A stretch of DNA of 64,000 nt from Micromonospora rhizosphaerae (lineage in GTDB: Bacteria > Actinomycetota > Actinomycetes > Mycobacteriales > Micromonosporaceae). A program made the translations under genes and the position numbers. Below, in pieces: positions 4,483 to 54,894 of this stretch; within the stretch, counting starts at the first letter, position 1, and the number at the start of each line of letters is the position of its first letter. A model generated the notes under the pieces. It saw nothing but the letters and a program-made list of their open reading frames with translations, was not told the origin of the DNA and did not search any database. The stretch spans positions 5,828,001 to 5,892,000 of the forward strand of contig NZ_FMHV01000002.1 of NCBI RefSeq assembly GCF_900091465.1, read 5' to 3'.

Positions 4483-4878
4483 ATGACCGACACTCATGAC
4501 GCCGTGATCGTGGGTAGTGGCGTCAACGCGTTGGGCGCAGCGGCCCTGCTAGCGCGTGACGGCTGGTCGGCCGCGATATGTGAGCGCAACAAGCTGCCGG
4601 AGGCGCGACCTGCACTCGCGAGGCCGTGTTCCCCGTCTACACCGTGGAACTGGTGTCGAGCTGGAACCCGTTGTTCTTGGCGGGCCGGCGTACGCCGAGC
4701 TCGCCGACGAGCTGGCGAGGCGAGGGGTGAACTACCGCAACACCGACCTGCCGGCCGAGGTGGTGCGCTACGTGGTCGCCCCCGGCTCCGCGGCCAGCAG
4801 CGTCATTGTGCGGGGGGTCCAGGCCCAGCTGGCCGTAGGGCTTGCACAGGGGCGATGTACCAGGGCGCGGCCTACTAG
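4483..4878 (+). pseudogene. Broken FAD-dependent oxidoreductase (phytoene dehydrogenase-like)
   Basis: It starts well, with AAAGGAA before ATG and an N-terminal dinucleotide fold (DAVIVGSGVNALGAAALLA). After NKLPE the frame shifts; the next frame continues the same protein (GATCTREAVFPVYTVELVSS), and a second shift near 4680 leads to GPAYAELADELARRG in a third frame. The remainder is far too short for a ~520-aa family member, so there is also an internal deletion. The intact relative would be a large flavoprotein of the phytoene-dehydrogenase/NAD(P)-binding group. It is the first gene of the oxidoreductase operon and is dead as written, unless the shifts are sequencing errors. Confidence 0.75.
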
Positions 4879-8724: not shown

Positions 8725-8770
8725 CCCGACGAACAGAGCCCACGAAACCGCCAAACGAAAGGAACCCCCG

Positions 8771-9541: not shown

Positions 9542-9554
9542 CGGATGTCCCTCG

Positions 9555-11314: not shown

Positions 11315-12861
11315 GTTGCCGTTGCCTCCGCATTGAGCTGCTCGCGCAGCTGCTTCTTGGCGATCTTGCCGGTGGAGTTGAGTGGGAAGGAGTCGACGAG
11401 GCGGACGTCCTTCGGCTTCTTGTACGACGCCATGCGCGCGCGGCAGTGCTCGATGATCGCCTCGGGGGTCACGCTCGTTTCCGGCTCGACGGTGACGAGG
11501 GCAACGACGCGTTGGCCCCAGTCACGGTCGTCCACTCCGACGACGGCGACCTCGTGCACACCGGGCACCTCGGCGACGATGTCCTCGACCTCGCGGGGAT
11601 AGATGTTGTAGCCACCAGAAATGATCATGTCGCCCTTTCGGTCGACGAGCCACAGCCGCTCGGCATCGTCCAACCGGCCGAGATCGCCGGTGTGCAGCCA
11701 TCCGTCCCGAACGCTCTTGGACAGGTCCGCCCTGCCCTCGGCGTTCCAGTAGCCCGGCATGACGTGGTCGCCGCGGGTCACGACCTCCCCGACCTCGCCC
11801 ACGGGCACCTCACGGCCACTCTCGTCGACGATGCTCACCTCGACGCCGAACGCCGGCCGGCCGGCGCTGGTCAGCAGGGCGGGCGCGTCGGTCAGTCCGC
11901 GTGCGTGGTCGGCCGCGTCGAGGATGGTGACCGGTGGGATGGCCTCAACCAGGCCGTAGTACTGGACGAGGTTGGGGGTGAGCCGCTCATGGGCCGCCCG
12001 GATCTGCTCCGACGGCATCGGCGCGCCGGCGTAGCCGAGCATCTTGAGTCCTCGCATGCGGTCGCGGTCGACCTCGGGCACGGCCAACAGGCGCGCAATC
12101 ATCGTCGGTACCAGCGCGGTGTGCGTGGCGCCGCGGTTTTCGACGGCGTCCACCAGCGCCTCGGGGTCCCAGGTGGGCAGGATCAGCTGGGTGGCTCCGT
12201 GCGCGAGGAAGGGCAGCACGAACAGTCCGCTCGTGTGGGTGATGGGACCTGCGTGTACGTACACGTCGTCCGGCCCGGGCAGCGACCCGACCACGTCGGT
12301 CACCATGTTGACCAGGCTTGCCATCCGGTTGCGGTGGCTGCGCTGCGCGCCCTTCGGATGTCCGGTGGTTCCGCTCGAGTAGTGCAGACCGCACAGCGAG
12401 TCAGGGTCGCAGGACAGCAGCAGCGGTAGCGCGCTCTGCTCGGCGAGCAGCTTCTCGTACGGCCGGCCCGGGGCGTCGCCAATGACGACCACCCGGTCCG
12501 GGTCCAGGCCGGACCGCAGCTCCTCGGTCTGCTCCGCGAACCGTGCGTCGTAGACGAGGGCCACCGCACCACAGTCGTCGGCGATTCGCGCCCAGTCGCT
12601 GGGGTGTAGCCGGTAGTTCAGCGCGACCCGCACCAGGCCGGCGCCCGGGATTCCCAGATCGGTCTCGACATAGGTGTTCTGGTTCGGCTGCAAATCGAGT
12701 ACCCGGTCCCCGGGCTGGAGCCCGAGCGAGCGCAGCCCGCGCGCCAGCCGGGCCACCCGCTCGCCGAACTCGGCGAAGGTCTGCCGGCCCTGCGGCCCGT
12801 CGAGGGCTCGGCGGCCAGCGTAACGGCGGGCGGATCGGGCGACGAGACGGCCGATGTCCAT
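11302..12861 (-). CDS. AMP-forming acyl/aryl-CoA synthetase
   Basis: The 519-aa product is an ANL-superfamily ligase that activates a carboxylic acid with ATP and CoA. Motifs in order: P-loop YSSGTTGHPKGA, A4/A5 region LGYAGAPMPSEQ and VQYYGLVEA, hinge region GWLHTGDLGRLDD and DRKGDMIISGGYNIYP, and the catalytic C-terminal Lys in NSTGKIAKKQL. ATG is preceded by GAGGAG and lies 4 nt after the stop of the NDP-forming ligase; the downstream mutase overlaps it. By context it could make the aryl-CoA that the monooxygenase at 16659 uses, or activate the carboxylic acid handled by the mutase. The motif set does not fix the substrate. Confidence 0.92.
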   Translation of the reverse strand: MDIGRLVARSARRYAGRRALDGPQGRQTFAEFGERVARLARGLRSLGLQPGDRVLDLQPNQNTYVETDLGIPGAGLVRVALNYRLHPSDWARIADDCGAVALVYDARFAEQTEELRSGLDPDRVVVIGDAPGRPYEKLLAEQSALPLLLSCDPDSLCGLHYSSGTTGHPKGAQRSHRNRMASLVNMVTDVVGSLPGPDDVYVHAGPITHTSGLFVLPFLAHGATQLILPTWDPEALVDAVENRGATHTALVPTMIARLLAVPEVDRDRMRGLKMLGYAGAPMPSEQIRAAHERLTPNLVQYYGLVEAIPPVTILDAADHARGLTDAPALLTSAGRPAFGVEVSIVDESGREVPVGEVGEVVTRGDHVMPGYWNAEGRADLSKSVRDGWLHTGDLGRLDDAERLWLVDRKGDMIISGGYNIYPREVEDIVAEVPGVHEVAVVGVDDRDWGQRVVALVTVEPETSVTPEAIIEHCRARMASYKKPKDVRLVDSFPLNSTGKIAKKQLREQLNAEATATWNG

Positions 12862-12865
12862 GTGC

Positions 12866-14914
12866 TCACTCCTCAGGGGGTGCCGCGTAGGCGGCGTCGA
12901 GGATGCGTGCTCCCCGGGGGAGCACGACTACGGGGTTCAGGTCAAGCTCGAAGCCGGCGGGCCAGGCGGCGACCGTGTCGGCGAGCCGGACGACGAGCTC
13001 CACGAGGGCGTCCGCATCGGCGCGCGTCCGGCCGCGGACGCCGGCGAGCAGCGACGCGACGCGCGTCTCGGCGATCATCTCCCGCACGTCGTGCGCGGTT
13101 ACGGGCAGCAGCCGGAGCGCCACGTCGTCGAACACCTCGGTGAGTACGCCGCCCGGACCGACCGTCAGCACCGGGCCCAACGGGCTGGGTGCCACGCCGA
13201 CGAGCACCTCGACGCCCTGATCGACCTGCTCCTCGACGAGCACGTCACCGCCCAACGCCGCGAGCCGGTCGTACGTCGCCGCGGCGTCGGCCTCGGTGAC
13301 GTCCAGTACGACGCCCCCCGCCTCGGTCTTGTGCAGCAAGCCGGGAACAACGGCTTTGCACACGGCGCGACCACCTGCCTCGGCGACCGCGGCCACCGCG
13401 TCGTCGCGATTCGCCGCGATCCGATGCCGCGGTACCGGCAGGCCGGTCGTCGCGAGCAGCGCCTTGAGTTCGGCCTCCGTGGCGCCGGGTGCCGGGGCGG
13501 GAATGCAGCGGCTACCCCCGGGGAGCGCGACGCCGCGGCGCGGCCGACTCACCTGCCAAAGGGCCGCGGCCGCGCGTACGGCACGGGCAGGGGTCGGGTA
13601 GGCCGGAATGCCGGCAGCGTGCAGGGCGGCGGCCGCCGCCGGCGCGAGGTGCTCAGCGCCGGTCCGCGCGGCCAGGACCGGCTTGCCGGTGGCGGCGGCG
13701 ATCCGCTCCAGCGAGGTGACCACCTGGGCGACGTCATCGCCGGTGAGGACGCAGAAGCACGCGACCACACAATCGACCTCGGGGTCGTCGGCGACCGCGT
13801 CCAGGGCCCGGTCGAACAACGACGGGTCGCCCATCACGGTGGCCGTGACGTCGACCGGGTTGGCCGTGGCGCCGAACGCTGGCACGATCTCGCGCAGGAC
13901 CGCACCGGTCTGCGGACCCAGGGATGCCAGCCGCAGGTCGTACCGCTCGATCGCATCGGCAGCGAGGATGCCGGATCCGCCGCTGGTCGTCACCACGGCC
14001 ACCCGGGGCCCGGCCGGGCGTCGGGGCTGCGCGAACGCCTGCGCGACGTCGAGTAGCTCGTCGACGTCCTCGACCCGCACGATGTCAAGCTGCCGCAGGG
14101 CGGCATCGACGACCCGGTCGCCAGCCGCCAGGGCACCTGTGTGCGAGGCCGCCGCCCGCTGACCGGCTTCGGATCGCCCCGCTTTCAGGAGTGCCACGGG
14201 CACCCCAGACGCGGCGAGCCGGCGCAGCGCGGCGCCGTCGGTGAGCGACTCGACGTAGCCGAGCAGCCCGGTGCACCCGGGCTCCTCGGCGAGCGCGCAG
14301 AGGGCTTCCAGCGCGGTGACGTCCGCCTCGTTGCCCGTCGTCACCACCTGGCCCAAACCGATTCTCCGCTCGAAGGCGAGGCTGACCGTGCCGTATCCGA
14401 GGGCTCCGCTCTGGCTGACGAAGGCGAGCGGACCGGGTACGAGCGCCGTCTGCGCGCCGGAGAACAGCGGACTGAACGAGGCCACCAGCCCGGTCTCGAC
14501 GCCGACGGCACCGATGCAGTTCGGGCCGACGAGCCGCAAACCCCCGGCCCGCGCCTTCGCGACGATCTCGTCCTGCAGCCGCGCGCCCACCTCGCCGGTT
14601 TCGGCGAAGCCGCTCGAGCAGACGATGGCGACCGGGACGCCGGCGGCCACGCAGTCGTCGATCGCGCCCGGCACCTTGTCGGCGGAGACGAGCAGCATAG
14701 CGAGCTCCACCGGGCCGGGGCAGGCCTGCACCGACGGGTAGGCTGGGAGGCCGAGCACCTCGCCGCCGTCGGGACGGACCGGATAGACAGCGCCCCCGTA
14801 GCCGTGGCGGCGGAGGTACTCCACGGGCAGCCGGCCGAGCGAACCGGGTCGCGCGGAGGCGCCCACGACCGCGACGGAGCGCGCCGACCACAGTGCGCGG
14901 AGCGGGTTGGACAC
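12866..14914 (-). CDS. NDP-forming acyl-CoA synthetase (acetate-CoA ligase family), alpha-beta fusion
   Basis: The 682-aa product is a one-chain ADP-forming acyl-CoA synthetase. The N-terminal CoA-binding Rossmann domain (SARSVAVVGASARPGSLGR), the succinyl-CoA-synthetase-like domain with the phospho-His in ASHTGALAAGD, and the ATP-grasp domain (KAVVPGLLHKTEAGGVVLD) appear in that order. It interconverts an acyl-CoA with acid plus ATP, and so can harvest ATP from a final thioester or activate an acid. I chose GTG 14914 because GTGAGGA lies 8 nt upstream; an in-frame GTG 14929 is the alternative. It leads a three-gene unit with the AMP ligase and mutase. Confidence 0.9.
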   Translation of the reverse strand: MSNPLRALWSARSVAVVGASARPGSLGRLPVEYLRRHGYGGAVYPVRPDGGEVLGLPAYPSVQACPGPVELAMLLVSADKVPGAIDDCVAAGVPVAIVCSSGFAETGEVGARLQDEIVAKARAGGLRLVGPNCIGAVGVETGLVASFSPLFSGAQTALVPGPLAFVSQSGALGYGTVSLAFERRIGLGQVVTTGNEADVTALEALCALAEEPGCTGLLGYVESLTDGAALRRLAASGVPVALLKAGRSEAGQRAAASHTGALAAGDRVVDAALRQLDIVRVEDVDELLDVAQAFAQPRRPAGPRVAVVTTSGGSGILAADAIERYDLRLASLGPQTGAVLREIVPAFGATANPVDVTATVMGDPSLFDRALDAVADDPEVDCVVACFCVLTGDDVAQVVTSLERIAAATGKPVLAARTGAEHLAPAAAAALHAAGIPAYPTPARAVRAAAALWQVSRPRRGVALPGGSRCIPAPAPGATEAELKALLATTGLPVPRHRIAANRDDAVAAVAEAGGRAVCKAVVPGLLHKTEAGGVVLDVTEADAAATYDRLAALGGDVLVEEQVDQGVEVLVGVAPSPLGPVLTVGPGGVLTEVFDDVALRLLPVTAHDVREMIAETRVASLLAGVRGRTRADADALVELVVRLADTVAAWPAGFELDLNPVVVLPRGARILDAAYAAPPEE

Positions 14915-15042
14915 GGCTGAGGTCCTCACGTTTCTCTTTCGATCGTCAAGATGCCAAACGTTTTCGGAGATCGGCAGTCGCCTCGTCTTTGCCGCTGTGG
15001 ACGGAAGGCGCACCGTCCGCGCGCCCTCCGCCCGTCAGCGGT
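14915..15042. promoter_or_regulatory. Leader of the ligase/mutase operon with GTCAAGAT motif
   Basis: The 128-bp gap between the MFS stop and the ligase start carries GTCAAGAT at 14945-14952, the same octamer (or one-base variants) found before three other genes of the aromatic-CoA cluster. On the reverse strand it reads ATCTTGAC. It may be the operator of the PaaX-type regulator or part of a promoter. Confidence 0.4.
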
Positions 15043-16658: not shown

Positions 16659-19025
16659 TCACTTCGCCGGCTGCCATCGGGCGTGCCGGGTCCCGGGCTC
16701 ACCCTCACGGACAAGCTGCAGCCGCGGCTTTGGCCCGTCGGTACGCCCCGTCTGCGGTCTGCGGCGCCCCGCCTGCCACGGATCGGGCCACTCCGCGCCC
16801 GGTCCCCGGTACCCCTGCTCGGCAGCCGCATGCAGGGTCCAGTTCGGGTCGTAGAGGTGCGCGCGCCCGACCGCACAAAGGTCGGCCCGACCGGCCAGCA
16901 CGATCGAGTTCACGTCGTCGTACGAGCTGATCACACCGACCGCGATCGTCGCGATGCCGACCCGGTTACGGATCGCGTCGGCGTACGGCGTCTGGTAGGA
17001 GCGTCCGAAGGCCGGCTTCTCCTCCGGCGTCACCTGCCCGGTCGACACGTCGATGGCGTCGGCGCCGGCGTCGGCGAAGGCACTCGCTATCGCCACCGCG
17101 TCCTCGCCGGTGATGCCACCGGAGACCCAATCGGTGGCCGAGATGCGCACCGAGATCGGACGGTCCTGCGGCCAGACGTCGCGGATCGCGCGGAACACCT
17201 CGAGCGGGTAGCGCAGCCGGCCTTCCAGCGACCGGCCGTAGGAGTCAGTGCGATGGTTGGTGATCGGCGAGATGAAGCTCGACAGCAGGTAGCCGTGCGC
17301 GCAATGCAATTCGAGCAGGTCGAAGCCGGCCCGCGCGGCCATCTGCGCGGCCTGGACGAACTGCTCGCGGATCTCGTCCATATCGGCGCGGGTGAGTTCG
17401 CGGGGCACCTGGTTGACGCCCGGCCGGTAGGGCAGCGGCGAGGGCGCGACGAGTTCCCAGTTGCCATCGGGCAGCGGCTGGTCGATCCCCTCCCACATCA
17501 GCCTGGTCGAACCCTTGCGCCCTGAATGTCCGACCTGGATGCCGATTTTGGCCGTGGTCTCGGTGTGTACGAAGTCAACGACCCGCCGCCAGGCCGCCTC
17601 GTGCTCGGGGCGGTACATGCCAGCGCAACCCGGCGTGATGCGTCCGCTCTCCGAGACGCAGACCATCTCGGTCATCACCAGGCCGGCACCGCCGAGCGCC
17701 TTGCCGCCGAGGTGGGAAAGGTGGAAATCGTTGGGAAGGCCGTCGACCGCCTTGTACATGTCCATCGCCGAGACGATGACGCGATTTTTCAGCTCCAGGC
17801 CACGCAGCCGGAACGGTTGGAACATCGGCGGGCGAACGTCTCCGGGCGCCACGCTACGACGGGCGGAGTGGTCGGCGAACCACTCGTCGACGCGCTCGAC
17901 GAACTCGGGGTCACGCAGGCGTAGGTTTTCGTAGGTGACCCTACGGCTGCGGGTCATGATGTTGAACGCAAACTGCGGCGTCTCCTGGTGGACGTACTGG
18001 CCGAGGTTTTCGAACCACTCAAGGCTCGCCTGCGCCGCGCGCTGCGTGGAGAGCACCACCGGTTTGCGCTCTGCTTCGTAGGCCTCGACCGCCGCCGGAA
18101 CCGTCGGCTGCTCGTGCAGGCACGCCGCGAGCGCCAGCGCGTCCTCCATGGCGAGCTTCGTCCCCGAGCCGATGGAGAAGTGAGCGGTGTGCGCGGCGTC
18201 GCCGAGCAGCACGACGTTGCCGTGCCGCCAGGTCTCGTTACGCACTGTCGCAAAACTGATCCACTTTGAGTTGTTCGCATGCACCTCGTGGCCGCCGAGG
18301 ATGTCGGCGAACAACTCGCGCACCCTCGCGATCGACTTTTCGTCGCTATGTCCCGGCGGGAACTCCCCCGCGGCGAGCACGTCGAAGCCGGCGGCCCGCC
18401 ACACGCTCTCGTGCATCTCGACAATCAACGTCGAGCCAGTGGCGTTGTACGGGTAGGCGTGGATCTGCATGACGCCGTACGGCGTCTCGCAGACGTAGAA
18501 CTTGAACGCGTCGAAAACGAGGTCGGTGCCGAGCCACATGTACTTGCAGTGACGCACGTCGATGCTCGGCTGGAAGGTATCGGCGTACTTGGCGCGGATC
18601 ATCGAGTTGAGTCCGTCGGCGGCGACCACCAGATCGTAGCTGCGCGACAGCTCGTCGGCGCTCGGCGCCTCGGTGCAAAAGTGCAGGGTCACACCGAGGT
18701 CCCGGCAGTGCTCCTGCAGGATCTGCAAAAGGCGCCGGCGGCTCATCGCGGCGAAGCCATGGCCTCCGCTCGTCACCACCTCACCGCGGAAGTGCATGTC
18801 GATGTCGTCCCAGCGGGCGAACTCCCGCTCCATCGCGTTGAAGATGGCCTTGTCGGCGTGCTCGATACCGCCCAGGGTCTCGTCGGAGAACACAACGCCG
18901 AAGCCGAAGGTATCGTCGGGTGCGTTGCGTTCCCACACTGTGATCTCGTGCTGCGGGCCGAGTTGCTTGGCGAGAGCGGAGAAATACAGCCCACCCGCGC
19001 CCCCACCGATGACCGCGATGCGCAC
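16659..19025 (-). CDS. Bifunctional aryl-CoA flavin monooxygenase / old-yellow-enzyme reductase (salicylyl-CoA 5-hydroxylase or 2-aminobenzoyl-CoA monooxygenase/reductase class)
   Basis: The 788-aa product joins two flavoproteins. Residues ~1-375 are a PHBH-type FAD monooxygenase: VRIAVIGGGAGGLYFSALAK at the start and GNVVLLGDAAHTAHFSIGSG for the GD motif. Residues ~395-765 are an FMN old-yellow-enzyme TIM barrel: MFQPFRLRGLELKNRVIVSA, QVGHSGRKG, LLELHCAHGYLLSSFISP, SYGRSLEGRLRYPLEV. This fusion is known from salicylyl-CoA 5-hydroxylase annotations and from 2-aminobenzoyl-CoA monooxygenase/reductase of Azoarcus evansii, which hydroxylates and then reduces the ring. GTG 19025 is chosen because GGGAGG lies 5 nt upstream and relatives start MRIA; GTG 19031 is possible. 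It is divergent from an SDR gene. Confidence 0.92.
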   Translation of the reverse strand: MRIAVIGGGAGGLYFSALAKQLGPQHEITVWERNAPDDTFGFGVVFSDETLGGIEHADKAIFNAMEREFARWDDIDMHFRGEVVTSGGHGFAAMSRRRLLQILQEHCRDLGVTLHFCTEAPSADELSRSYDLVVAADGLNSMIRAKYADTFQPSIDVRHCKYMWLGTDLVFDAFKFYVCETPYGVMQIHAYPYNATGSTLIVEMHESVWRAAGFDVLAAGEFPPGHSDEKSIARVRELFADILGGHEVHANNSKWISFATVRNETWRHGNVVLLGDAAHTAHFSIGSGTKLAMEDALALAACLHEQPTVPAAVEAYEAERKPVVLSTQRAAQASLEWFENLGQYVHQETPQFAFNIMTRSRRVTYENLRLRDPEFVERVDEWFADHSARRSVAPGDVRPPMFQPFRLRGLELKNRVIVSAMDMYKAVDGLPNDFHLSHLGGKALGGAGLVMTEMVCVSESGRITPGCAGMYRPEHEAAWRRVVDFVHTETTAKIGIQVGHSGRKGSTRLMWEGIDQPLPDGNWELVAPSPLPYRPGVNQVPRELTRADMDEIREQFVQAAQMAARAGFDLLELHCAHGYLLSSFISPITNHRTDSYGRSLEGRLRYPLEVFRAIRDVWPQDRPISVRISATDWVSGGITGEDAVAIASAFADAGADAIDVSTGQVTPEEKPAFGRSYQTPYADAIRNRVGIATIAVGVISSYDDVNSIVLAGRADLCAVGRAHLYDPNWTLHAAAEQGYRGPGAEWPDPWQAGRRRPQTGRTDGPKPRLQLVREGEPGTRHARWQPAK

Positions 19026-19031
19026 CGACAC

Positions 19032-19108
19032 CTCCCGTTGTCCGAACCGACGGATCGAGAGTATGTTGTGTTTTCGTCGGTCGTCAAGGTAACGGTAGGA
19101 GATCGAGG
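19032..19108. promoter_or_regulatory. Divergent promoter with GTCAAGGT motif
   Basis: Between the monooxygenase and the SDR, GTCAAGGT lies at 19083-19090. Read on the reverse strand it contains TTGACG, followed after about 18 bases by TACTCT, a plausible -35/-10 pair for the monooxygenase operon. The same octamer recurs before other cluster genes, so it may also be a regulator site. Confidence 0.45.
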
Positions 19109-19891
19109 ATGGCTCGATGGCCCCGGTTTCGCGGACGCACGGCAGTGGTCACCGGCGGTTCGGGAGGCATCGGCCGCGCGATCTGCGACGGCCTGGCCGC
19201 CGAAGGTGCCGCGGTCGCGGTCGTTGACGTGAACCGCCCGGCGGTGGACGTGACGGTCGAGGCCCTGCGCGTCGAGCACGCCGTCGAAGCGGCCGGCTTC
19301 GTCGTTGACGTGCGCGATCCGGGCGCAGTGACCACCCTCATGCGCGAGGTTCACGAACGTCTCGGCGGGCCCCACGTGCTCGTCACGCTGGCCGGAGGTT
19401 CGCTCGGCACGCCACGGGACCTGGCGGAAATCGAACCCGAGCACGTCGATCTCGTCATAGACGTCAACGTCAAGGGGACGCTCTACTGCTGCCAGGCGGC
19501 CGTGCCGTATCTGGTCGCGGCCGGCGGCGGATCCATCGTCACCACCTCGTCGATCGGCGGCCGGCAGCCCTCGCCTGTCACCGGCGTCCCCTACGCCACC
19601 AGCAAGGCGGCCGTGCTGGGACTTACCCGCAGGCTGGCCCGCGAGGTGGGGCCGCAGGGCGTGCGGGTCAACGCGGTCGCTCCCGGGCTCTTCCTCACCG
19701 GGCGGCTACAGGGCATGTACGACGCCATGCCGTCCGCCGAGCGCGACGAAGTCCTCGACGCGATCCCGCTGCGCCGCTTCCCCGACCTGCGCGAGGCCGT
19801 GGACCCGATCCTGTTCCTCTGTTCGGAGGAGGCGTCGTACATCACCGGCGTAGTGCTCGACGTCAACGGCGGCCGCTTCATGCCGCTATGA
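19109..19891 (+). CDS. SDR-family oxidoreductase
   Basis: The 260-aa product is a classical short-chain dehydrogenase: TGGSGGIG nucleotide motif (15-22), VDVRD, ITTSSIGG-like Ser segment (TTSSIGGRQ), YATSK with the catalytic Tyr and Lys, and a C-terminal ITGVVLDVNGG. It oxidises or reduces an alcohol/ketone with NAD(P). AGGAG stands before ATG. Beside an aryl-CoA monooxygenase/reductase its likely job is a 3-hydroxyacyl-CoA or cyclic alcohol dehydrogenase step on the reduced ring; this is inference from context. Confidence 0.9.
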   Translation: MARWPRFRGRTAVVTGGSGGIGRAICDGLAAEGAAVAVVDVNRPAVDVTVEALRVEHAVEAAGFVVDVRDPGAVTTLMREVHERLGGPHVLVTLAGGSLGTPRDLAEIEPEHVDLVIDVNVKGTLYCCQAAVPYLVAAGGGSIVTTSSIGGRQPSPVTGVPYATSKAAVLGLTRRLAREVGPQGVRVNAVAPGLFLTGRLQGMYDAMPSAERDEVLDAIPLRRFPDLREAVDPILFLCSEEASYITGVVLDVNGGRFMPL

Positions 19892-20041
19892 GGCGGGCCC
19901 TCGCCTGAGAACGCTATCCTGCTCGGCGCCCATGCCGATCGCTCTCCGGCTCCCGGGCGTCCGGATGTGGTTGCACAATCTTTCCTGACCGACTTGGTCC
20001 AGCCACAATGGATGGTTATCAGTCGCTCGTGCGCGGCTCGC

Positions 20042-20479
20042 TCAGGCGCCGCTGATCAATTCACGCGCCTGCGGACCGGACTCCAGAAGCGCCTTGCGCA
20101 CCTCGTCCAGCCACGGCATCGTGCCGCCGACCTGTGGGTCGGAGCTGACCGCCACCATCGACCCGCGCGCCGCGACCTCGCCCCCACGGCGCACCTCAAA
20201 GCTGTAGGTGACCGACGTACGTCCGACCGCTGCAACGCGGATCTCGATGTCGACCCGGTCGCGGAACCACAGCCGCGCGAGGTAGTCCACCTCGTAACGT
20301 ACGCGCGGGACCACCCCGAACAGGTCGAGCAGTCCGAGCCGCTCGTGCAGGACGGATTCCGCCGACTCGATCCAGCGGATGACGGTGGAGTGGTGGTAGT
20401 GGCCGGCCGCGTCGGTGTCCGGCCACTCCACCCGTCGCTGGACGATGACGCTCGCCGCCTCGGTCGCCTCGATCCTCAT
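20042..20479 (-). CDS. Acyl-CoA thioesterase, 4-hydroxybenzoyl-CoA thioesterase-like hotdog
   Basis: The 145-aa product is a single hotdog domain with the family start VEWPDTDAAGHYHHSTVIRW; the Asp of DTDAAGH corresponds to the catalytic acid of 4-hydroxybenzoyl-CoA thioesterase. RVRYEVDYLARLWFRDRV is the central helix and strand. It hydrolyses an acyl- or aryl-CoA. I chose ATG 20479, which overlaps the stop of a small upstream frame (ATGA). In the cluster it may release CoA from a dead-end or final aryl-CoA. Confidence 0.87.
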   Translation of the reverse strand: MRIEATEAASVIVQRRVEWPDTDAAGHYHHSTVIRWIESAESVLHERLGLLDLFGVVPRVRYEVDYLARLWFRDRVDIEIRVAAVGRTSVTYSFEVRRGGEVAARGSMVAVSSDPQVGGTMPWLDEVRKALLESGPQARELISGA

Positions 20480-20676
20480 GGCACCACCGTCTCGGCCTGC
20501 GACTGGGCGGTCGCCGTGCTCGGCCACGGCGTCCGCGAGCAGTCAGGGCCCACCTTGTTCGGCAGCGAGCCGGCGGCGCCGGCGTGCAGCGGAAAGACGA
20601 CGATGCCGCCGAGGCCGAACGTGAACGCGAGCAACGGGGCGCCGGTTAAGACGGCGTCGCACGTGGGCTTGAGCAC
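20476..20676 (-). CDS. Small hypothetical protein coupled to the thioesterase
   Basis: A 66-aa frame begins at GTG 20676 with GAGGTGA about 6 nt upstream and ends in a 4-nt ATGA overlap with the thioesterase start, so translation is plausible. It has one hydrophobic stretch (GAPLLAFTFGLGGIVVFPLH) and no recognised domain. It could be a real small protein, a relic of a larger one, or only a coupling leader. Confidence 0.4.
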   Translation of the reverse strand: MLKPTCDAVLTGAPLLAFTFGLGGIVVFPLHAGAAGSLPNKVGPDCSRTPWPSTATAQSQAETVVP

Positions 20677-20679
20677 GAT

Positions 20680-20745
20680 GAATCACCTCAAGGGTCGTAC
20701 GCAATGCGCTTAGTCTGTCAGTACTGTGACGGAAGTCAAGAAAGC
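20680..20745. promoter_or_regulatory. Upstream region of the thioesterase unit with GTCAAGAA motif
   Basis: GTCAAGAA at 20735-20742 resembles the octamer before other cluster genes, and CAGTACTG nearby (about 20720-20727) is a perfect 8-bp palindrome. These sit just before the reverse-strand unit starting at 20676 and could be its operator. Confidence 0.35.
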
Positions 20746-21093
20746 GCGATAAGATTCAACCAACGGCCGATCGGTTCAGCCACGCGGAGCAGCCGTTTCG
20801 CCCCGTTGGCATCCGACCGCCGTGACGCCCGCGGAGTGCCCGACCAGCACGAGCCACACCTGCGGACCGAGCGCCTCTGCCGACCAGACCCGGCACCCGA
20901 TCGACGGCAAGGGCGACGTCGTCGAAGGTCCGGAGCCAGACCCCTTTGCTGGCCGACCCGGCGGAACTCGATCGACGCGACCGCCCACCGCGGGTGGCGC
21001 ACGGCGGCAACGTGATCCTCGAGCGATCAAAACGATCAGGTCGGGCGGCGGTGCGGGCCGCGCGAGCACCTCGCGGGGGTGTGTCGAAACCAC
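20736..21093 (-). pseudogene. Eroded alpha/beta-hydrolase (GHSAG) gene
   Basis: Three reverse frames together spell parts of an alpha/beta hydrolase of the arylformamidase-like group: HPRWAVASIEFRRVGQ in one, GVWLRTFDDVALAVDRV in the next, and VWLVLVGHSAGVTAV with the nucleophile elbow in the third. No single frame holds it, so it is frameshifted at least twice and truncated. It lies in the gap before the PaaX-type gene and its remains may overlap the promoter. Confidence 0.45.
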
Positions 21094-21121
21094 CGCGTCG
21101 TCCTGCCGCTATCGTTCATCC

Positions 21122-21973
21122 GTGACGACGTTGACGGCCGATCCACAGGGGGTCGGCGAGACCCGCGGGCTGCAGCCACGAGCCCTCATCGTGACCACGT
21201 ACGGGGCGTTCGCGCGGGAGGCCGGCGGCTGGCTTTCGGTCTCCTCCCTCATCCGGCTCATGGCCGATCTCGAGGTCGACGAGCCGGCCGTCCGCTCATC
21301 CATCTCCCGGCTGAAGCGCCGCGGCATCCTCGAGGCCGCGAAGCTCAATAGCTCGGCCGGCTACGCGCTCTCGGAGCGGGCCCGGGAAATTCTCGCGGAG
21401 GGTGACCGGCGCATCTTCCAGCGGCCCGTCTCCCGCCTCTCCGACGGCTGGGTGCTGGCGGTCTTCTCGGTGCCCGAATCCGAGCGCGACCGCCGGCACG
21501 TCTTGCGCTCGAGGCTGACGTGGCTCGGCTTCGGCACTGCGGCGCCGGGCGTCTGGATCGCCCCCGCGCACCTCTATGACGAGGCGCGCGAGGAACTCGA
21601 GCGCCTCGAGTTGACTTCCTACGTCAACCTGTTCCGCGCCGAGTACCTCGCCTTTGCCGACATTCGCGCCTGCATAGACCAGTGGTGGAACCTCGAGGGA
21701 CTGCAGCGGCTGTACGACGAGTTCCGCACGTCCTGGCAACCGGTACTAGCCCGGTGGCGCCGCCGCCGGTCGCTGGACGAAGGCCAAGCGTTCGCGGACT
21801 ATATCCGGGCGCTCACCCATTGGCGGCGGCTCCCGTTCCTCGACCCGGGGTTGCCCGTCGAGCTCCTCCCAGCCAACTGGCACGGCTCCCGCGCCGCCGA
21901 CCTGTTCGAGTCGCTGCAGCTTCTGCTGCGCGAGCCCGCTCACCGGCACGTCCGCGCGATCACTGGCCGTTAG
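21122..21973 (+). CDS. PaaX-family transcriptional regulator
   Basis: The 283-aa product matches PaaX-type repressors of aryl-CoA pathways: N-terminal winged helix (RALIVTTYGAFAREAGGWLS, LEVDEPAVRSSISRLKRRGI), the central domain with VLAVFSVPESERDRRHVLRS and RLTWLGFGTAAPGVWIAP, and the C-terminal helical part (HWRRLPFLDPGLPVELLP). Relatives repress phenylacetate genes until phenylacetyl-CoA binds. GTG 21122 is chosen; no Shine-Dalgarno precedes it and TATCGT lies about 6 nt upstream, so the message may be leaderless. It sits in the middle of the aryl-CoA cluster and is the best candidate for its regulator. Confidence 0.88.
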   Translation: MTTLTADPQGVGETRGLQPRALIVTTYGAFAREAGGWLSVSSLIRLMADLEVDEPAVRSSISRLKRRGILEAAKLNSSAGYALSERAREILAEGDRRIFQRPVSRLSDGWVLAVFSVPESERDRRHVLRSRLTWLGFGTAAPGVWIAPAHLYDEAREELERLELTSYVNLFRAEYLAFADIRACIDQWWNLEGLQRLYDEFRTSWQPVLARWRRRRSLDEGQAFADYIRALTHWRRLPFLDPGLPVELLPANWHGSRAADLFESLQLLLREPAHRHVRAITGR

Positions 21974-22395
21974 CCGGGTACGACCGCGATCCCCTGAACT
22001 TCAACGAGCGCCTCGACGTCCCAGAGCCGGGCCACGCCGATCCCCGCCATCGCCGGGTAGTCACGGCCCACCACCCGCCGCCAGACGGCACCGATCTCGC
22101 GCGCGTGCGACCGGTAGTCCTCCATGTTGACGATGTAGACCGTCAGGCTGACCAGGTGAGCGGCCTCGCCGCCGGACGCCTTCAGCGCGGTCACCAGGTT
22201 GGTCAGGGCGCGCTCGAACTGCTCCACGACTGTGTCACCGACGATGCGCCCGCCCGCATCGAGCGCGGTTTGGCCTGCGAGGAACACTAGCCGACCGCGC
22301 TCGACCGAGACAGCGTGCGAGAACCCGGACGGGGGCGCCAACTCGTGCGGGTTGACACGTTCCATAGGAGTTGGATTCCCTTCCCTCCGCGCCAT
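21970..22395 (-). CDS. RidA-family enamine/imine deaminase
   Basis: The product (141 aa from ATG 22395) is a Rid/YjgF/UK114 protein: NPHELAPPSGFSHAV, LVFLAGQTALDAGG, ALTNLVTALKASGGEAAHLV and YPAMAGIGVARLWDVEALVE, where the Arg of the family carboxylate-binding site is seen as VARL. Rid proteins hydrolyse enamines or imines to ketones and ammonia. GGAGGG precedes ATG 22395; ATG 22365 gives the length closest to relatives (131 aa). It follows the SDR by 19 nt. In a 2-aminobenzoyl-CoA route it would deaminate the enamine made by ring reduction. Confidence 0.88.
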   Translation of the reverse strand: MARREGNPTPMERVNPHELAPPSGFSHAVSVERGRLVFLAGQTALDAGGRIVGDTVVEQFERALTNLVTALKASGGEAAHLVSLTVYIVNMEDYRSHAREIGAVWRRVVGRDYPAMAGIGVARLWDVEALVEVQGIAVVPG

Positions 22396-22414
22396 TAGAA
22401 CACCCTCCGCTCCA

Positions 22415-23176
22415 TCAGGACTGGACGGCGCCGCCATCCACGTTGATGCCCTGGCCCGTCACCGCCCCGTTGACAGCGCAGAGCCACACCGCTTCGGCGA
22501 CCTCTTCTGGCGTGACCAGGCGCCCGATGGGCTGCCGGGCGGCGAGCGCCGCGCGGGCCTCCGCCAGCGAACGGCCCGTCTTCTCCGCGATCGCGGCCAC
22601 CGTAACATCGGTCATGGGCGTGTCGACGTACGCCGGACACACCGCGTTGACCGTCACGCCGCTACTCGCCAACTCGGCGGCGGCGGCGCGGACGAGCCCG
22701 AGAACCCCGTGCTTCGCGGCTGTGTACGCCGCGATGTAGGGCTCGCCCCGTTTGGCCGCGATCGAGGCGACCACGACCACGCGACCGAATCCGCGCTCGA
22801 CCATCCCGGGTACCGCCCGGCGTACGCACCGGAAGGGCGCCGTGAGCAGCAGGTCAAGCTGACCCCGCCACATCTCGTCGGTGGTGTCGGCGAGCTTGGC
22901 CGAAACCCCCGACCCCGCGTTGGCGACCAGCACGTCGACCGCGCCCCACTCGGCCTCGACCGCCGCGAATACCTCGTCAACGGCGGAGGCCACCGTGATA
23001 TCGGCGGGAAGCACGAGCGACGGCCCGGGCAACGTCGCGGCGACCTGCCCGAGCTGATCGGTGGAGCGCGCGGTGAGCGCGACACGATGACCCTCGGCCG
23101 AAAGTCGCTGCGCCACGGCGCGGCCGATTCCTCGGCCGGCACCGGTGACGAGGCAGGTACGCGTCGCGGCTGGCAC
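22415..23176 (-). CDS. SDR-family oxidoreductase
   Basis: The 253-aa product is a short-chain dehydrogenase/reductase: TGAGRGIG (11-18), ANAG, the catalytic Ser in VVVASIAAKRG, YTAAK with catalytic Tyr/Lys, and VTGQGINVDGG near the end. GTG start with GAGGAG 6 nt upstream. It is close to FabG/3-hydroxyacyl-CoA dehydrogenase types and sits between the RidA gene and the divergent thiolase, so a ring-alcohol or 3-hydroxyacyl-CoA dehydrogenase step is likely. Which of the two SDRs does which step cannot be read. Confidence 0.9.
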   Translation of the reverse strand: MPAATRTCLVTGAGRGIGRAVAQRLSAEGHRVALTARSTDQLGQVAATLPGPSLVLPADITVASAVDEVFAAVEAEWGAVDVLVANAGSGVSAKLADTTDEMWRGQLDLLLTAPFRCVRRAVPGMVERGFGRVVVVASIAAKRGEPYIAAYTAAKHGVLGLVRAAAAELASSGVTVNAVCPAYVDTPMTDVTVAAIAEKTGRSLAEARAALAARQPIGRLVTPEEVAEAVWLCAVNGAVTGQGINVDGGAVQS

Positions 23177-23256
23177 GGGGGACTCCTCGCCTGATTAGAG
23201 CTGACGGACACCCGCATCTTGTCAATCAGCGGCGACGACCGTCAAGATAGCGACAT
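23177..23256. promoter_or_regulatory. Divergent promoter with inverted ATCTTG/CAAGAT repeat
   Basis: ATCTTGTC (23216-23223) and GTCAAGAT (23241-23248) form an inverted repeat with one mismatch. TTGTCA at 23219-23224 and CAAGAT at 23243-23248 are 18 bp apart and could be -35 and -10 for the thiolase, which would then start at its own ATG without a leader. The overlap of repeat and promoter suits repression by the PaaX-type protein. Confidence 0.5.
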
Positions 23257-24453
23257 ATGAACGAGCTCAGGTCTCCCGTCATCCTCGACGCCGTCCGCAC
23301 GCCGTTCGGTCGCTACCGCGGCGGCCTGTCCGGGATCCGCGTCGACGATCTTGCCGCCCTGCCCATCGCGGAACTCGTCGCCCGCCACCCCGGGCTCGAC
23401 CCCGAACATATCGACGACGTGGTCTACGGCAACACGAACGGCGCGGGCGAGGAAAACCGCAACGTCGCGCGCATGGCGGGGCTGCTCGCCGGTCTCCCGG
23501 TCACGGTCCCGGGAACGACGGTCAACCGGCTGTGCGCCAGCGGCGGGGAGGCCCTCTTGCACGGCGCGCGTACCGTCGCGGTCGGCGAGGCCAACCTGGT
23601 CATCGCCGGCGGCGTCGAGGGGATGAGCCGTGCGCCGTTCGTCCTGCCAAAGCCGGAGGACGCGCTGCCCCGCAGCATGGAGTTGCACCAGACGACGGTC
23701 GGCTGGCGAATGGTCAACCCCCGCCTTCCCGCGCACTGGACCGGCTCCCTTGGCGGGTGCGCGGAGCGGGTCGCCGCCGAGCTCGGCATCGGCCGGGACG
23801 AGCAGGACGCGTGGGCGCTGCGTAGTCACGAGCGCGCGAGCGCGGCCTGGGAGACAGGGCTGCACGACGACTACGTCATGGCGGTGACGGCGCCGGACGG
23901 CACGGTCGTGCGGCGCGACGAATCGGTACGGCCGAACACGAACGCCGCGAAGCTGGCGGCGTTGCGCCCGGCGTTCGCCTCGGACGGGACGGTGACGGCC
24001 GGCAACTCGTCGCCGATAAACGATGGCGCCCTCGCCCTCCTCGTGGGCACACGCGGGGCCGCAGAGGAGTTGGGCCTCACCCCGCTCGGGCGCATCCTCG
24101 GCTCGGCGACCGTGGCCGTCGAGCCGGACCGCTTCTCCATCGCCCCCGTGCCCGCCGTCGAGCGCGCGTTGGCGCGAGCCGGTCTCGGGCACCGGGACGT
24201 CGACGTGTGGGAGATAAACGAGGCGTTCGCCGCGATGGTGCTCTCGACGCTGCGCGGACTGCCGGAGATCGACCTCGAGCGGGTCAACCCGAACGGGGGC
24301 GCGATTGCGATCGGTCACCCGCTCGGGGCGTCGCTCCTGCGGGTCGTCGCCGACCTGTGCCGGCAACTGCGCCGCCGCGGCGGCGGGGTTGGTGTCGCCT
24401 GCGCCTGCATCGGAGTCGGCCAGGGTCAGGCCATCGTCGTAGAGGTTCAGTGA
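23257..24453 (+). CDS. Thiolase (acetyl-CoA acyltransferase)
   Basis: The 398-aa product is a degradative thiolase: catalytic Cys93 in NRLCASGGEA, His354 in GGAIAIGHPLGAS, Cys384 in CACIGVGQG, and the family segments AVRTPFGRYRGGL and EINEAFAAMVL. It cleaves a 3-oxoacyl-CoA with CoA. No Shine-Dalgarno is visible before ATG and a promoter-like pair ends just upstream, so the mRNA may be leaderless. The enoyl-CoA-hydratase-like gene follows 11 nt later. It would perform the last C-C cleavage of the ring-opened chain. Confidence 0.92.
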   Translation: MNELRSPVILDAVRTPFGRYRGGLSGIRVDDLAALPIAELVARHPGLDPEHIDDVVYGNTNGAGEENRNVARMAGLLAGLPVTVPGTTVNRLCASGGEALLHGARTVAVGEANLVIAGGVEGMSRAPFVLPKPEDALPRSMELHQTTVGWRMVNPRLPAHWTGSLGGCAERVAAELGIGRDEQDAWALRSHERASAAWETGLHDDYVMAVTAPDGTVVRRDESVRPNTNAAKLAALRPAFASDGTVTAGNSSPINDGALALLVGTRGAAEELGLTPLGRILGSATVAVEPDRFSIAPVPAVERALARAGLGHRDVDVWEINEAFAAMVLSTLRGLPEIDLERVNPNGGAIAIGHPLGASLLRVVADLCRQLRRRGGGVGVACACIGVGQGQAIVVEVQ

Positions 24454-24464
24454 GGGAGCCAGAA

Positions 24465-25265
24465 GTGAAGGTCGAGGAGTTCACCGACGTCGCCTACGAG
24501 GTACGCGAGGAGGATGCCGTCGCGGTAATCACGGTCAACCGGCCGGACCGCTATAACGCCTTCCGCGGCCGCACAGTGGACGAGCTGATTAACGCGTTCA
24601 AGCACGCCTGGGCGGACAAGCGCGTGGCGTGCGTGATACTCACCGGCGCCGGCGACAAAGCGTTCTGCGCCGGCGGGGACGTCAAGGAGCGCGCGGAGAC
24701 CGGGTCCTACGGTGAGACCGAGTGGGGCACCTTCGAGATCGAACGGCTACACCGGATCATCCGCGACATCCCAAAGCCGGTGATCGCCGCCGTCAACGGC
24801 GTCGCGGTCGGCGGTGGTCACGTGCTGCACGTCCTGTGCGACCTCACCGTCGCGGCCGAGCACGCGCGGTTCGGGCAGAGCGGCCCCCGCGTCGGCTCCT
24901 TCGACGCGGGGTTCGGCTCGGCGTACCTCGCCCGCGTCGTCGGCGAGAAGCGAGCGCGGCAGATCTGGTTCCTCCTCGACCTCTACGACGCCGCGACGGC
25001 CGAACGGTGGGGACTGGTCAACCAGGTCGTGCCGGCCGAGCAACTCATGGAAAAGGCGCTGGAGTGGGGTCGCCGCATCGGGTCCTACTCCCCCACGGCC
25101 CTGAGGTTTCTCAAGCATTCGTTTAACGCCGACAGCGACCACATCGGCGGCCTGTCCCACCTGGCGTTCGACGGACTGGAACTGTTCGCGCACTCCGAGG
25201 AGGGTATGGAAGGCGCCCAGGCATTCGCCGAGAAGCGTCCGCCCGACTTCTCGCCGTACCGCTGA
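24465..25265 (+). CDS. BadI-like 2-ketocyclohexanecarboxyl-CoA hydrolase / enoyl-CoA hydratase family
   Basis: The 266-aa product is a crotonase-fold protein that resembles BadI of Rhodopseudomonas palustris more than ordinary hydratases: NRPDRYNAFRGRTVDELI, KAFCAGGD oxyanion motif (66-72), AVGGGHVLHVLCDLTVA, and ARFGQSGPRVGSFDAGFGSA with Asp147 in the place used by BadI and MenB. BadI opens a 2-oxocyclohexanecarboxyl-CoA ring with water. GTG start with GAGGGAG upstream; cotranscribed with the thiolase. The resemblance is from memory of the family and points to hydrolytic ring cleavage of an alicyclic CoA thioester in this cluster. Confidence 0.85.
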   Translation: MKVEEFTDVAYEVREEDAVAVITVNRPDRYNAFRGRTVDELINAFKHAWADKRVACVILTGAGDKAFCAGGDVKERAETGSYGETEWGTFEIERLHRIIRDIPKPVIAAVNGVAVGGGHVLHVLCDLTVAAEHARFGQSGPRVGSFDAGFGSAYLARVVGEKRARQIWFLLDLYDAATAERWGLVNQVVPAEQLMEKALEWGRRIGSYSPTALRFLKHSFNADSDHIGGLSHLAFDGLELFAHSEEGMEGAQAFAEKRPPDFSPYR

Positions 25266-54858: not shown

Positions 54859-54894
54859 CAGTACGTCAAATCACGCAGATATGCTGGGAAATTG

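What the first reader, a model, noticed from the sequence alone, without database searches (positions are those of the whole stretch)
16659..25265. Likely actinobacterial aerobic CoA-thioester pathway for an aminated or hydroxylated benzoate
A monooxygenase/OYE fusion, RidA, two SDRs, BadI-like hydrolase, thiolase, thioesterase and PaaX regulator are packed together. The fusion class and BadI are known from 2-aminobenzoyl-CoA (Azoarcus evansii) and cyclohexanecarboxylate (R. palustris) metabolism. Joined, they give a coherent route: ring hydroxylation plus reduction, enamine hydrolysis by RidA, hydrolytic ring opening by the BadI-like enzyme, thiolysis. Using a BadI-type hydrolase after the monooxygenase/reductase is, as far as I recall, not the described route.
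Basis: partly seen in the sequence, partly recalled or inferred. Interest (0 to 1): 0.8.

Follow-up and report, generated by a model that had tools for sequence, protein, structure and literature searches.

The report
Anthraniloyl-CoA degradation cluster with B12 mutase
An actinobacterium carries a gene cluster that probably degrades anthranilate (a breakdown product of indole compounds) as a coenzyme A ester, and its gene content suggests that the ring is opened by a hydrolase and the product finished with a vitamin-B12 enzyme instead of the usual steps.

Summary
In detail: fusion monooxygenase/OYE, Rid protein, two SDRs, thioesterase, PaaX, thiolase and a BadI/MenB-like crotonase lie at 16659-25265. 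The unit is larger: at 4913-16503 lie IorA/IorB-like genes, an isatin hydrolase, a B12-dependent acyl-CoA mutase, two CoA ligases and a transporter, most of which recur near the fusion in other actinobacteria. Isatin hydrolase beside the fusion, and sister-cluster ligases related to a tested anthranilate-CoA ligase, favour 2-aminobenzoyl-CoA over salicylyl-CoA. Behind the fusion there are three alternative lower modules; of 62 fetched loci, none of the 17 with this crotonase shows the acyl-CoA dehydrogenase or cupin/thioesterase module. In 296 genomes of its class, all 10 with this mutase clade have the fusion and 9 the crotonase. Best model (chemistry inferred): 2-aminobenzoyl-CoA to 2,5-dioxocyclohexanecarboxyl-CoA, to 4-oxopimeloyl-CoA, B12 mutase to 2-methyl-3-oxoadipyl-CoA, thiolysis to succinyl-CoA plus propionyl-CoA. 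Mutase substrate and both ligase roles are unproven; Virgisporangium has fusion and crotonase without this mutase.

The parts
4492..4792 (+). Degraded remnant of an FAD amine-oxidase-type gene (AO1 type of sister clusters)
   Evidence: three short tblastn pieces, 50-69% identical to AO1 of L121, spanning residues 10-107 of 531
4913..7075 (+). IorA-like TPP 2-oxoacid:ferredoxin oxidoreductase, alpha (start chosen by me)
   Evidence: TIGR03336 264 bits, under cut-off 651; 74-76% identical copies near the fusion in L058, L078, L096, L121, L140
7075..8724 (+). IorB-like subunit
   Evidence: NF006179 699 bits, cut-off 348
8771..9541 (+). Isatin hydrolase (cyclase family)
   Evidence: best PDB matches are four isatin hydrolase sequences, 269-291 bits; PF04199
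9791..11314 (-). B12-dependent acyl-CoA mutase large subunit, divergent subfamily (MCM)
   Evidence: PF01642 582 bits; subfamily residues; co-occurrence
11302..12861 (-). AMP-forming acyl-CoA ligase (AMPL)
   Evidence: PF00501/PF13193; next to MCM in the loci where both are seen
12866..15013 (-). ADP-forming acyl-CoA ligase, fused subunits (ADPL)
   Evidence: PF13607/PF13549; nearest solved 4-hydroxybutyrate--CoA ligase (ADP-forming), 302 bits
15043..16503 (-). MFS aromatic acid transporter (start perhaps 16401)
   Evidence: TIGR00895 329 bits, under cut-off 419; 61-62% copies beside the fusion in L062, L063
16659..19031 (-). Anthraniloyl-CoA monooxygenase/reductase-type fusion (FUS)
   Evidence: NF006101 1256 bits over cut-off 1078
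19109..19891 (+). SDR1
   Evidence: PF13561; beside FUS in many BadI-type clusters
20042..20527 (-). 4HBT-type thioesterase
   Evidence: PF13279 39 bits, cut-off 25.5
21122..21973 (+). PaaX-family regulator (open frame from 20822)
   Evidence: PF07848, PF20803, PF08223; start candidates
21970..22437 (-). Rid-family protein, YPAM subfamily (RID)
   Evidence: PF01042 75 bits; Met at the R105 column; natural FUS-Rid fusion P0280
22415..23176 (-). SDR2
   Evidence: PF00106/PF13561; 42% to the SDR behind the Paracoccus fusion
23257..24453 (+). Thiolase, PcaF-like (THL)
   Evidence: TIGR02430 465 bits, cut-off 597
24465..25265 (+). Crotonase beside the BadI clade, predicted ring hydrolase (CRO; start GTG 24450 or 24465)

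Best explanation
It is an aerobic CoA-thioester pathway for anthranilate units, fed at least in part by isatin/indole compounds, with a third type of lower half. Proposed route: isatin -> isatinate (isatin hydrolase) -> 2-aminobenzoyl-CoA, either directly by the IorAB-like 2-oxoacid oxidoreductase (decarboxylation with CoA) or through anthranilate and a ligase; [quoted passage not shown] -> 2,5-dioxocyclohexane-1-carboxyl-CoA + NH3 (Rid protein, which would need no carboxylate-binding Arg because the carboxyl is a thioester); -> hydrolytic retro-Dieckmann opening by CRO to 4-oxopimeloyl-CoA; -> B12-dependent skeleton rearrangement by MCM to 2-methyl-3-oxoadipyl-CoA (4-oxopimeloyl-CoA is a succinyl-CoA analogue with a ketone where succinyl-CoA has its carboxylate); -> thiolysis by the PcaF-like thiolase to succinyl-CoA + propionyl-CoA (7 C = 4 + 3). 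A variant in which SDR1 first reduces the ring ketone and SDR2 reoxidises after the mutase is equally open. Shown: gene identities, conserved linkage, clade placement. Known for relatives: the FUS product. Inferred: every reaction below FUS, the IorAB reaction, and above all the mutase substrate. Odds: aminobenzoyl-CoA substrate about 0.85; hydrolytic opening by CRO about 0.65 (lowered from 0.7 after I rechecked that CRO stands outside the annotated BadI clade); the mutase step as written about 0.35-0.4. The figure below is for the frame: anthraniloyl-CoA route with hydrolytic opening and a pathway-dedicated B12 mutase.
For: Isatin hydrolase identity and its presence in 14 of 62 fetched FUS loci (L009 and L084 are one contig); of these 14, five also show IorA, five a TPP decarboxylase-like protein, four neither. 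Natural FUS-Rid single protein P0280. C7H8O4-CoA, possibly cyclohexanedione-carboxyl-CoA, was seen exclusively in anthranilate-grown Arthrobacter Rue61a (passages of PMC3534580). CRO is split from MenB (100/100) and lies in a 49-row set (96/94) beside the BadI set; relatives inside that set sit next to acyl-CoA dehydrogenase. Host: two PF02621 proteins, next crotonase only 36% identical. MCM clade: 10 of 10 genomes have FUS and 9 of 10 CRO, of 296 examined. The one mutase genome without CRO (G186) and the one FUS+CRO genome without mutase (G220) both end their contig where the missing gene would be expected. ADPL-AMPL-MCM are adjacent in the loci where all three are seen and run into RID in one family and in L187. 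A B12-binding small subunit lies near the cluster in L127, L130, L137, L162, and a 66% copy is in the host. No acyl-CoA dehydrogenase homologue in any of the 17 CRO loci. Steroid precedent: a MenB-related crotonase (EchA20) opens a ring, and 2-methyl-beta-ketoadipyl-CoA is proposed to give propionyl-CoA and succinyl-CoA (passages of PMC5380842).
Against: Virgisporangium (L014/G725) has FUS 85% and CRO 89% but no member of the mutase clade (best 45%), and no thiolase in the 22 kb held, SDR2 lying directly beside CRO. The MAG behind L012 (G726) also lacks the clade (completeness not given) and has no thiolase between CRO and SDR2. CRO is outside the annotated BadI clade and has lost its Tyr. Two CoA ligases travel with the mutase even in genomes that also carry the anthranilate-ligase type (G183, G102, G014, G254), and the route gives neither a clear job. 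Mutase positions that I recall as near the CoA moiety (R82, R87) are changed. Part of the mutase signature is not universal: MHV in 81 of 120, FIQND in 110 of 120 closest relatives. The SDRs have no assigned step. IorA is far below the indolepyruvate model's cut-off.
Confidence: 0.57

Rival explanations
1. Anthraniloyl-CoA pathway with hydrolytic opening, but the ADPL-AMPL-MCM block serves a separate acid (for example a branched short acid) that is merely co-inherited.
For: Two ligases next to the mutase make a self-sufficient 'activate and rearrange' block; in G183 and G102 the mutase gene lies about 15 and 20 kb from FUS; Virgisporangium has FUS and CRO without the mutase clade.
Against: All 10 mutase-clade genomes of 296 have FUS; in the f36 family and in L187 the block runs straight into RID (and SDR2); in the stretches fetched, clusters L073, L127, L130 and L134 hold it beside FUS, RID, THL and CRO.
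Confidence: 0.27
2. The mutase acts upstream, as a (2-aminophenyl)succinyl-CoA mutase in an iaa-type indoleacetate route that ends in 2-aminobenzoyl-CoA.
For: The Aromatoleum iaa pathway uses a B12 mutase, IaaGH (PMC8360864, passages and a legend); indole-related genes are in the cluster.
Against: No acyl-CoA dehydrogenase of the kind tested in the 17 CRO loci (the probe was the Paracoccus one, not IaaF); isatin hydrolase points to an isatin route; L073, L127, L130, L134 show the mutase without isatin hydrolase, IorAB or amine oxidases in the stretch fetched.
Confidence: 0.07
3. Salicylyl-CoA 5-hydroxylase route to gentisate, as the NCBI family name implies.
For: NF006101 name; the genome has a gentisate-dioxygenase-like gene, 261 bits, at C2:2034847.
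Against: That gene scores under the family cut-off 442 and lies about 3.8 Mb away, close to another FAD monooxygenase hit; isatin hydrolase, Rid and a ring hydrolase would have no use; a FUS-Rid fusion protein exists.
Confidence: 0.07
4. CRO is a MenB (menaquinone biosynthesis) that happens to sit in the cluster.
For: Its best curated scores and best solved relatives are MenB.
Against: Below the MenB cut-offs; split from MenB with 100/100; the MenB Tyr column is V/T/I/A/G in the 26 labelled cluster rows; host has PF02621 proteins. The classical men genes of the host were not searched.
Confidence: 0.02

Closest known systems
2-aminobenzoyl-CoA monooxygenase/reductase pathway (Azoarcus evansii; Arthrobacter Rue61a pAL1)
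   Same: FUS 65% identical to the pAL1 fusion; Rid, PaaX, thioesterase and ligase genes are shared kinds. No A. evansii sequence was compared.
   Different: pAL1 and pRLCBG43 carry an FAH-family hydrolase, a cupin and an acyl-CoA thioesterase near the fusion; no CRO-, thiolase- or mutase-type gene is annotated in the stretches shown.
Proteobacterial clusters (Paracoccus denitrificans PD1222, Ruegeria pomeroyi)
   Same: fusion, SDR, RidA-family protein, ligase.
   Different: an acyl-CoA dehydrogenase and an enoyl-CoA hydratase (28-31% to CRO); no BadI-type hydrolase annotated in the stretches shown.
BadI / aerobic cyclohexanecarboxylate-type hydrolases
   Same: CRO stands beside them and away from MenB; GSxD motif kept.
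   Different: outside the annotated BadI clade; under the badI cut-off; Tyr of BadI (3 of 3) replaced; partner is an oxygenase fusion.
Last steps of steroid HIP catabolism (EchA20, FadA6)
   Same: a crotonase opens a ring by reverse Dieckmann; 2-methyl-beta-ketoadipyl-CoA proposed to give propionyl-CoA + succinyl-CoA (PMC5380842, passages).
   Different: there the methyl branch is part of the steroid-derived unit; here it would be made by a B12 mutase. No sequence of EchA20 or FadA6 was compared.
2-hydroxyisobutyryl-CoA mutase / methylmalonyl-CoA mutase
   Same: PF01642; columns recalled as Tyr89, Arg207, His244 kept.
   Different: clade changes: (G)TIQND to FIQND, LRxHxQT to LRIFxFT, SLHTN to TMHV, R87 to G.
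iad auxin-degradation loci of Variovorax and Bradyrhizobium
   Same: iorA/iorB homologues; isatin, isatinate and anthranilate detected in Variovorax (PMC9613470, passages and a legend).
   Different: the passages seen end at anthranilate; no ring-hydroxylating dioxygenase was seen among the window ORFs that I scanned.

Membership tests
Anthraniloyl-CoA (2-aminobenzoyl-CoA) monooxygenase/reductase | N-terminal FAD monooxygenase fused to C-terminal OYE domain, above curated cut-off | tested here: met
Anthraniloyl-CoA (2-aminobenzoyl-CoA) monooxygenase/reductase | acts on 2-aminobenzoyl-CoA and not salicylyl-CoA | not testable with these tools
   context only
BadI (2-ketocyclohexanecarboxyl-CoA hydrolase) | score over TIGR03210 cut-off 467.6 | tested here: not met
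   289.7 bits
BadI (2-ketocyclohexanecarboxyl-CoA hydrolase) | inside the clade of annotated BadI | tested here: not met
   BadI plus the Marinobacter aliB-neighbour form a set (100/99) apart from the 49-row set holding CRO; CRO works like, but is not filed as, BadI
BadI (2-ketocyclohexanecarboxyl-CoA hydrolase) | Ser/Asp active-site motif and Tyr near the C-terminus | tested here: inconclusive
   Ser/Asp kept; Tyr lost in 26 of 26 labelled cluster rows
MenB | over MenB cut-offs and in the MenB clade | tested here: not met
RidA (archetypal imine deaminase) | carboxylate-binding Arg (R105, recalled) and TIGR00004 cut-off 106 | tested here: not met
   Met at that column; 53 bits
AdoCbl acyl-CoA mutase family | PF01642 / TIGR00641 over cut-off | tested here: met
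   582 and 564 bits
Methylmalonyl-CoA mutase proper | equivalog NF006944 cut-off and substrate-site motifs | tested here: not met
   494 of 876 bits, but that model is longer (721 positions); motif changes
Isatin hydrolase | closest to solved isatin hydrolases; Mn motif HxGTHxDxPxH (recalled) present | tested here: met
   HTGTHFDAPNH in the translation
Indolepyruvate ferredoxin oxidoreductase | IorA equivalog cut-off | tested here: not met
   264 of 651 bits; partner subunit 699 against 348

The most novel reading that the evidence does not exclude
Aerobic degradation of an aromatic ring through a coenzyme-B12 carbon-skeleton rearrangement: a new acyl-CoA mutase turns the ring-opened 4-oxopimeloyl-CoA into 2-methyl-3-oxoadipyl-CoA, so that a 4-oxo acid becomes a 3-oxo acid and thiolysis yields succinyl-CoA and propionyl-CoA with no acyl-CoA dehydrogenase; and isatinate enters as 2-aminobenzoyl-CoA without a ligase, by a ferredoxin-dependent 2-oxoacid oxidoreductase.
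Probability: 0.35. Interest if true: 0.82.

Novelty: new variant of a known kind. Interest (0 to 1): 0.62.

Why it matters
In the sources that I could read, the lower half of the 2-aminobenzoyl-CoA pathway is left open: a 2015 review says only that 'enzymes of beta-oxidation' act (PMC4539516, passages). The clusters offer three testable lower halves. If the mutase step is right it would be a new reaction for the B12 acyl-CoA mutases and would tie indole/isatin-type compounds to central metabolism in actinobacteria. Names such as 'naphthoate synthase', given by a source to close relatives of CRO, would be wrong for this clade.

Tried and rejected
MenB reading of CRO: rejected (classical men genes not searched). 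Salicylate/gentisate reading: weakened. Mutase as ordinary methylmalonyl-CoA mutase: weakened; the host has three further mutase-type genes (51, 43 and 39%) and the cluster one has its own motifs. iaa-type role of the mutase: weakened. AMPL or ADPL as the only anthranilate ligase: not settled; G183, G102, G014 and G254 carry the anthranilate-ligase type as well; the host shows none at E<=1e-60 (an empty answer, and the tool warns that it shows nothing without a positive control). Literature: 0 papers hold anthranil + methylmalonyl-CoA mutase + isatin + gene cluster. The search for 4-oxopimelate/2-methyl-3-oxoadipyl-CoA terms found 14 papers, 13 listed; four are on steroids or cholesterol genes, of which I read passages of one, and I saw only the listing of the others. 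Two broader searches listed 30 of 435 and 20 of 97 papers; judged by title and start of abstract only, none is on this route apart from papers already read in passages. The original Azoarcus evansii paper is not held; its gene list is recalled only and is not used. att-site search: no exact repeat of 14 bases or more of the tRNA-Leu region elsewhere in the window. No structure was predicted and no fold search was run.

Limits and dropped rows: the 62 loci were fetched through FUS or CRO searches and several are cut by contig ends, so the counts are not prevalences; L009 and L084 are one contig; 11 of the 62 show none of the three lower modules in the stretch held (genomes of at least six of them have CRO or the mutase elsewhere). 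Maps hide matches under 28-30% identity. One search left out rows under 230 aligned residues and repeats, and labelled five cluster sequences (L044, L107, L108, L173, L176) 'other'. One search took every Rid-type match of 110 residues or more in the loci. The 22 mutase orthologues are largely from one family. Hypergeometric and Fisher values treat genomes as independent, which they are not. The ordinary crotonases of the other clusters and the L141 genes were not scanned against family libraries.

Full report
OBSERVATION. The fusion (FUS) passes the curated family NF006101 (1256 bits, cut-off 1078). The crotonase (CRO) lies between MenB and BadI models and passes none of their cut-offs; its start is GTG 24450 or 24465, overlapping or just behind the thiolase stop. 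The thioesterase is real but low-scoring.

THE UNIT IS LARGER. On the minus strand behind FUS follow an aromatic-acid MFS transporter, an ADP-forming acyl-CoA ligase (ADPL), an AMP-forming ligase (AMPL) and a B12-dependent acyl-CoA mutase large subunit (MCM), the last two overlapping by 13 bases. Left of these on the plus strand are IorA- and IorB-like genes and a cyclase-family protein whose best solved relatives are four isatin hydrolase sequences (269-291 bits; the next match has 99). Before IorA lies a remnant of an FAD amine-oxidase-type gene that is whole in sister clusters.

CONSERVATION. FUS (E<=1e-150) occurs in 48 of 296 genomes of the window's class. In one family (f36 in the handles; 85 genomes, 22 with CRO) compact clusters read PaaX | MCM AMPL ADPL RID (SDR2) | THL CRO | amine oxidases, IorAB, isatin hydrolase | FUS SDR1, with or without the indole-type part. 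L187 (G007) has PaaX, MCM AMPL ADPL RID SDR2 THL CRO, then a TPP decarboxylase-like gene and isatin hydrolase. In G183 and G102 the RID-SDR2-THL-CRO block, the FUS-isatin hydrolase block and the ADPL-AMPL-MCM block lie apart on one contig. So the blocks move but tend to stay together in content.

CO-OCCURRENCE. In the same 296 genomes the mutase clade (E<=1e-185) is in 10, all of which have FUS; CRO (E<=1e-85) is in 20, of which 10 have FUS; 9 genomes have all three. Leaving out the window's own genome, 9 of 9 mutase genomes among 47 FUS genomes of 295 has hypergeometric P 3e-8; among FUS genomes, CRO against mutase gives Fisher P 2.5e-7. Relatedness is not corrected for. The two off-diagonal genomes look like contig breaks: G186 (mutase, no CRO) has a contig that begins at SDR2, and G220 (CRO, no mutase) one that ends inside AMPL (L188, L124). 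Real counter-cases come from outside the sample: Virgisporangium (L014 in G725), FUS 85% and CRO 89% but best mutase 45%, and the MAG behind L012; both lack the thiolase at its usual place. Ten of the 20 CRO genomes have no FUS, so CRO relatives serve other pathways too. In the lists of 120 best proteins, entries with the same longest-contig length of 1,485,555 appear for MCM, CRO and FUS (P0003, P0122, P0244), which I take to be one contig.

THREE LOWER HALVES. Of 62 fetched loci with FUS at 50% or more (window included; fetched through FUS or CRO searches), 27 have an acyl-CoA dehydrogenase (45% or more to the Paracoccus one), each with an ordinary crotonase of one of two kinds (18 and 9); 7 have the cupin/acyl-CoA-thioesterase set of pAL1, 4 of them with its FAH-family hydrolase at 45% or more; 17 have CRO, 14 of them with THL and 11 with MCM; 11 show none in the stretch held. 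The three do not mix: no CRO locus shows the dehydrogenase or the cupin/thioesterase genes (one, L132, has a 45% FAH-like match). The fusion is common by selection; the Rid protein is seen in 49 of the 62. Two proteobacterial plasmids looked at carry the dehydrogenase type; Arthrobacter Rue61a pAL1 and Rhodococcus pRLCBG43 the FAH type.

SUBSTRATE. For 2-aminobenzoyl-CoA: isatin hydrolase in 14 of 62 loci, five with IorA, five with a TPP decarboxylase-like protein, four with neither in the stretch held; IorAB and the decarboxylase-like protein are two plausible ways to decarboxylate isatinate. A tryptophan 2,3-dioxygenase lies beside the Ruegeria fusion. Ligases of sister clusters are 60% identical to the pAL1 ligase next to its fusion, and two Rue61a ligases have measured anthranilate-CoA ligase activity (PMC3534580, passages read; I match gene names to the record by position). 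For salicylyl-CoA: the family name and a gentisate-dioxygenase-like gene 3.8 Mb away. I put 0.85 on the amino substrate. That IorAB makes 2-aminobenzoyl-CoA directly is inference; iorAB homologues are also listed in iad auxin loci, where isatin, isatinate and anthranilate were detected in Variovorax (PMC9613470, passages and one legend).

RID STEP. A natural 954-residue protein joins FUS and a Rid domain (P0280; 78% and 62% identical), which suggests that Rid works next to FUS. The Rid proteins have Met at the column that I recall as R105 of RidA in 62 of 65 aligned rows, in actinobacterial loci and in Paracoccus and Ruegeria alike. I read this as fit for an enamine whose carboxyl is a CoA thioester. 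C7H8O4-CoA, which the authors think may be cyclohexanedione-carboxyl-CoA, was seen exclusively in anthranilate-grown Rue61a.

RING OPENING. In a tree of 59 crotonases the four MenB rows plus one further row are split from the rest with 100/100. The three annotated BadI and a Marinobacter neighbour of aliB form one set (100/99); CRO lies in another, of 49 rows (96/94), so it is beside BadI and not in it. The FUS-cluster sequences make up 31 rows with 89/79, not fully supported. Relatives inside the 49-row set sit beside acyl-CoA dehydrogenase plus SDR in Azoarcus KH32C and Rhodococcus ruber and beside acyl-CoA dehydrogenases in L091, L092, L094 and L139, as a cyclohexanecarboxylate-type ring hydrolase would (inference). 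The Ser/Asp motif GSFD is kept; the MenB/BadI Tyr near the C-terminus is replaced in 26 of 26 labelled cluster rows. The host has two PF02621 proteins (MqnA/MqnD family, label recalled), and its next crotonase is only 36% identical to CRO; its classical men genes were not searched. A precedent for a MenB-related crotonase opening a ring exists (EchA20; PMC5380842, passages).

THE MUTASE. It keeps the columns recalled as Tyr89, Arg207 and His244 of methylmalonyl-CoA mutase, and differs from methylmalonyl- and 2-hydroxyisobutyryl-CoA mutase and from four paralogues at several others, in most or all of 22 orthologues. Among the 120 closest database relatives F.FTAG and the Arg207 motif are in 120, GQYAGF in 116, FIQND in 110, MHV in 81. 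It is a separate subfamily. A B12-binding partner lies near the cluster in four loci and unlinked in the host. CRO on 2,5-dioxocyclohexanecarboxyl-CoA would give 4-oxopimeloyl-CoA, which a thiolase cannot cut. A mutase shift of the thioester carbon, as between succinyl-CoA and methylmalonyl-CoA, would give 2-methyl-3-oxoadipyl-CoA, a methyl derivative of the substrate of PcaF, the nearest named thiolase, and the compound proposed to end steroid ring catabolism as propionyl-CoA plus succinyl-CoA. This accounts for thiolase and mutase and for the missing dehydrogenase; it does not account for the two ligases, nor for Virgisporangium, and it is inference.

VERDICT. The finding is real and larger than reported. 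I rate it a new variant of a known kind of pathway, with a possibly new B12 reaction inside.

Noticed in passing
window 53297-54322 and 54894-54978: A phage-type integrase gene near a tRNA-Leu gene, with transposase genes at 32108, 42504 and 49064; two same-genus genomes show no FUS, so the cluster may lie in a genomic island. No repeat of the tRNA region was found in the window.
   Followed up: partly
P0280: A natural single protein of the monooxygenase/OYE fusion plus a C-terminal Rid domain.
   Followed up: yes
L045 11972-13618; also L046, L009/L084, L061, L187: A TPP decarboxylase-like protein (acetolactate synthase/sulfoacetaldehyde acetyltransferase relatives, no cut-off met) beside isatin hydrolase where IorAB is not seen: a candidate isatinate decarboxylase.
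   Followed up: partly
L121 6215-7807 and 7962-9503: Two divergent FAD amine-oxidase/CrtO-like proteins conserved beside CRO and IorAB in several clusters; role unknown; only a remnant in the window.
   Followed up: no
L141, L142, L143: CRO relatives (58-61%) without FUS in a different gene set with several genes of about 350 residues; judged by eye only, not identified.
   Followed up: no
plasmid hits: Three Haladaptatus records are counted among the 95 plasmid records with the fusion; not opened.
   Followed up: no
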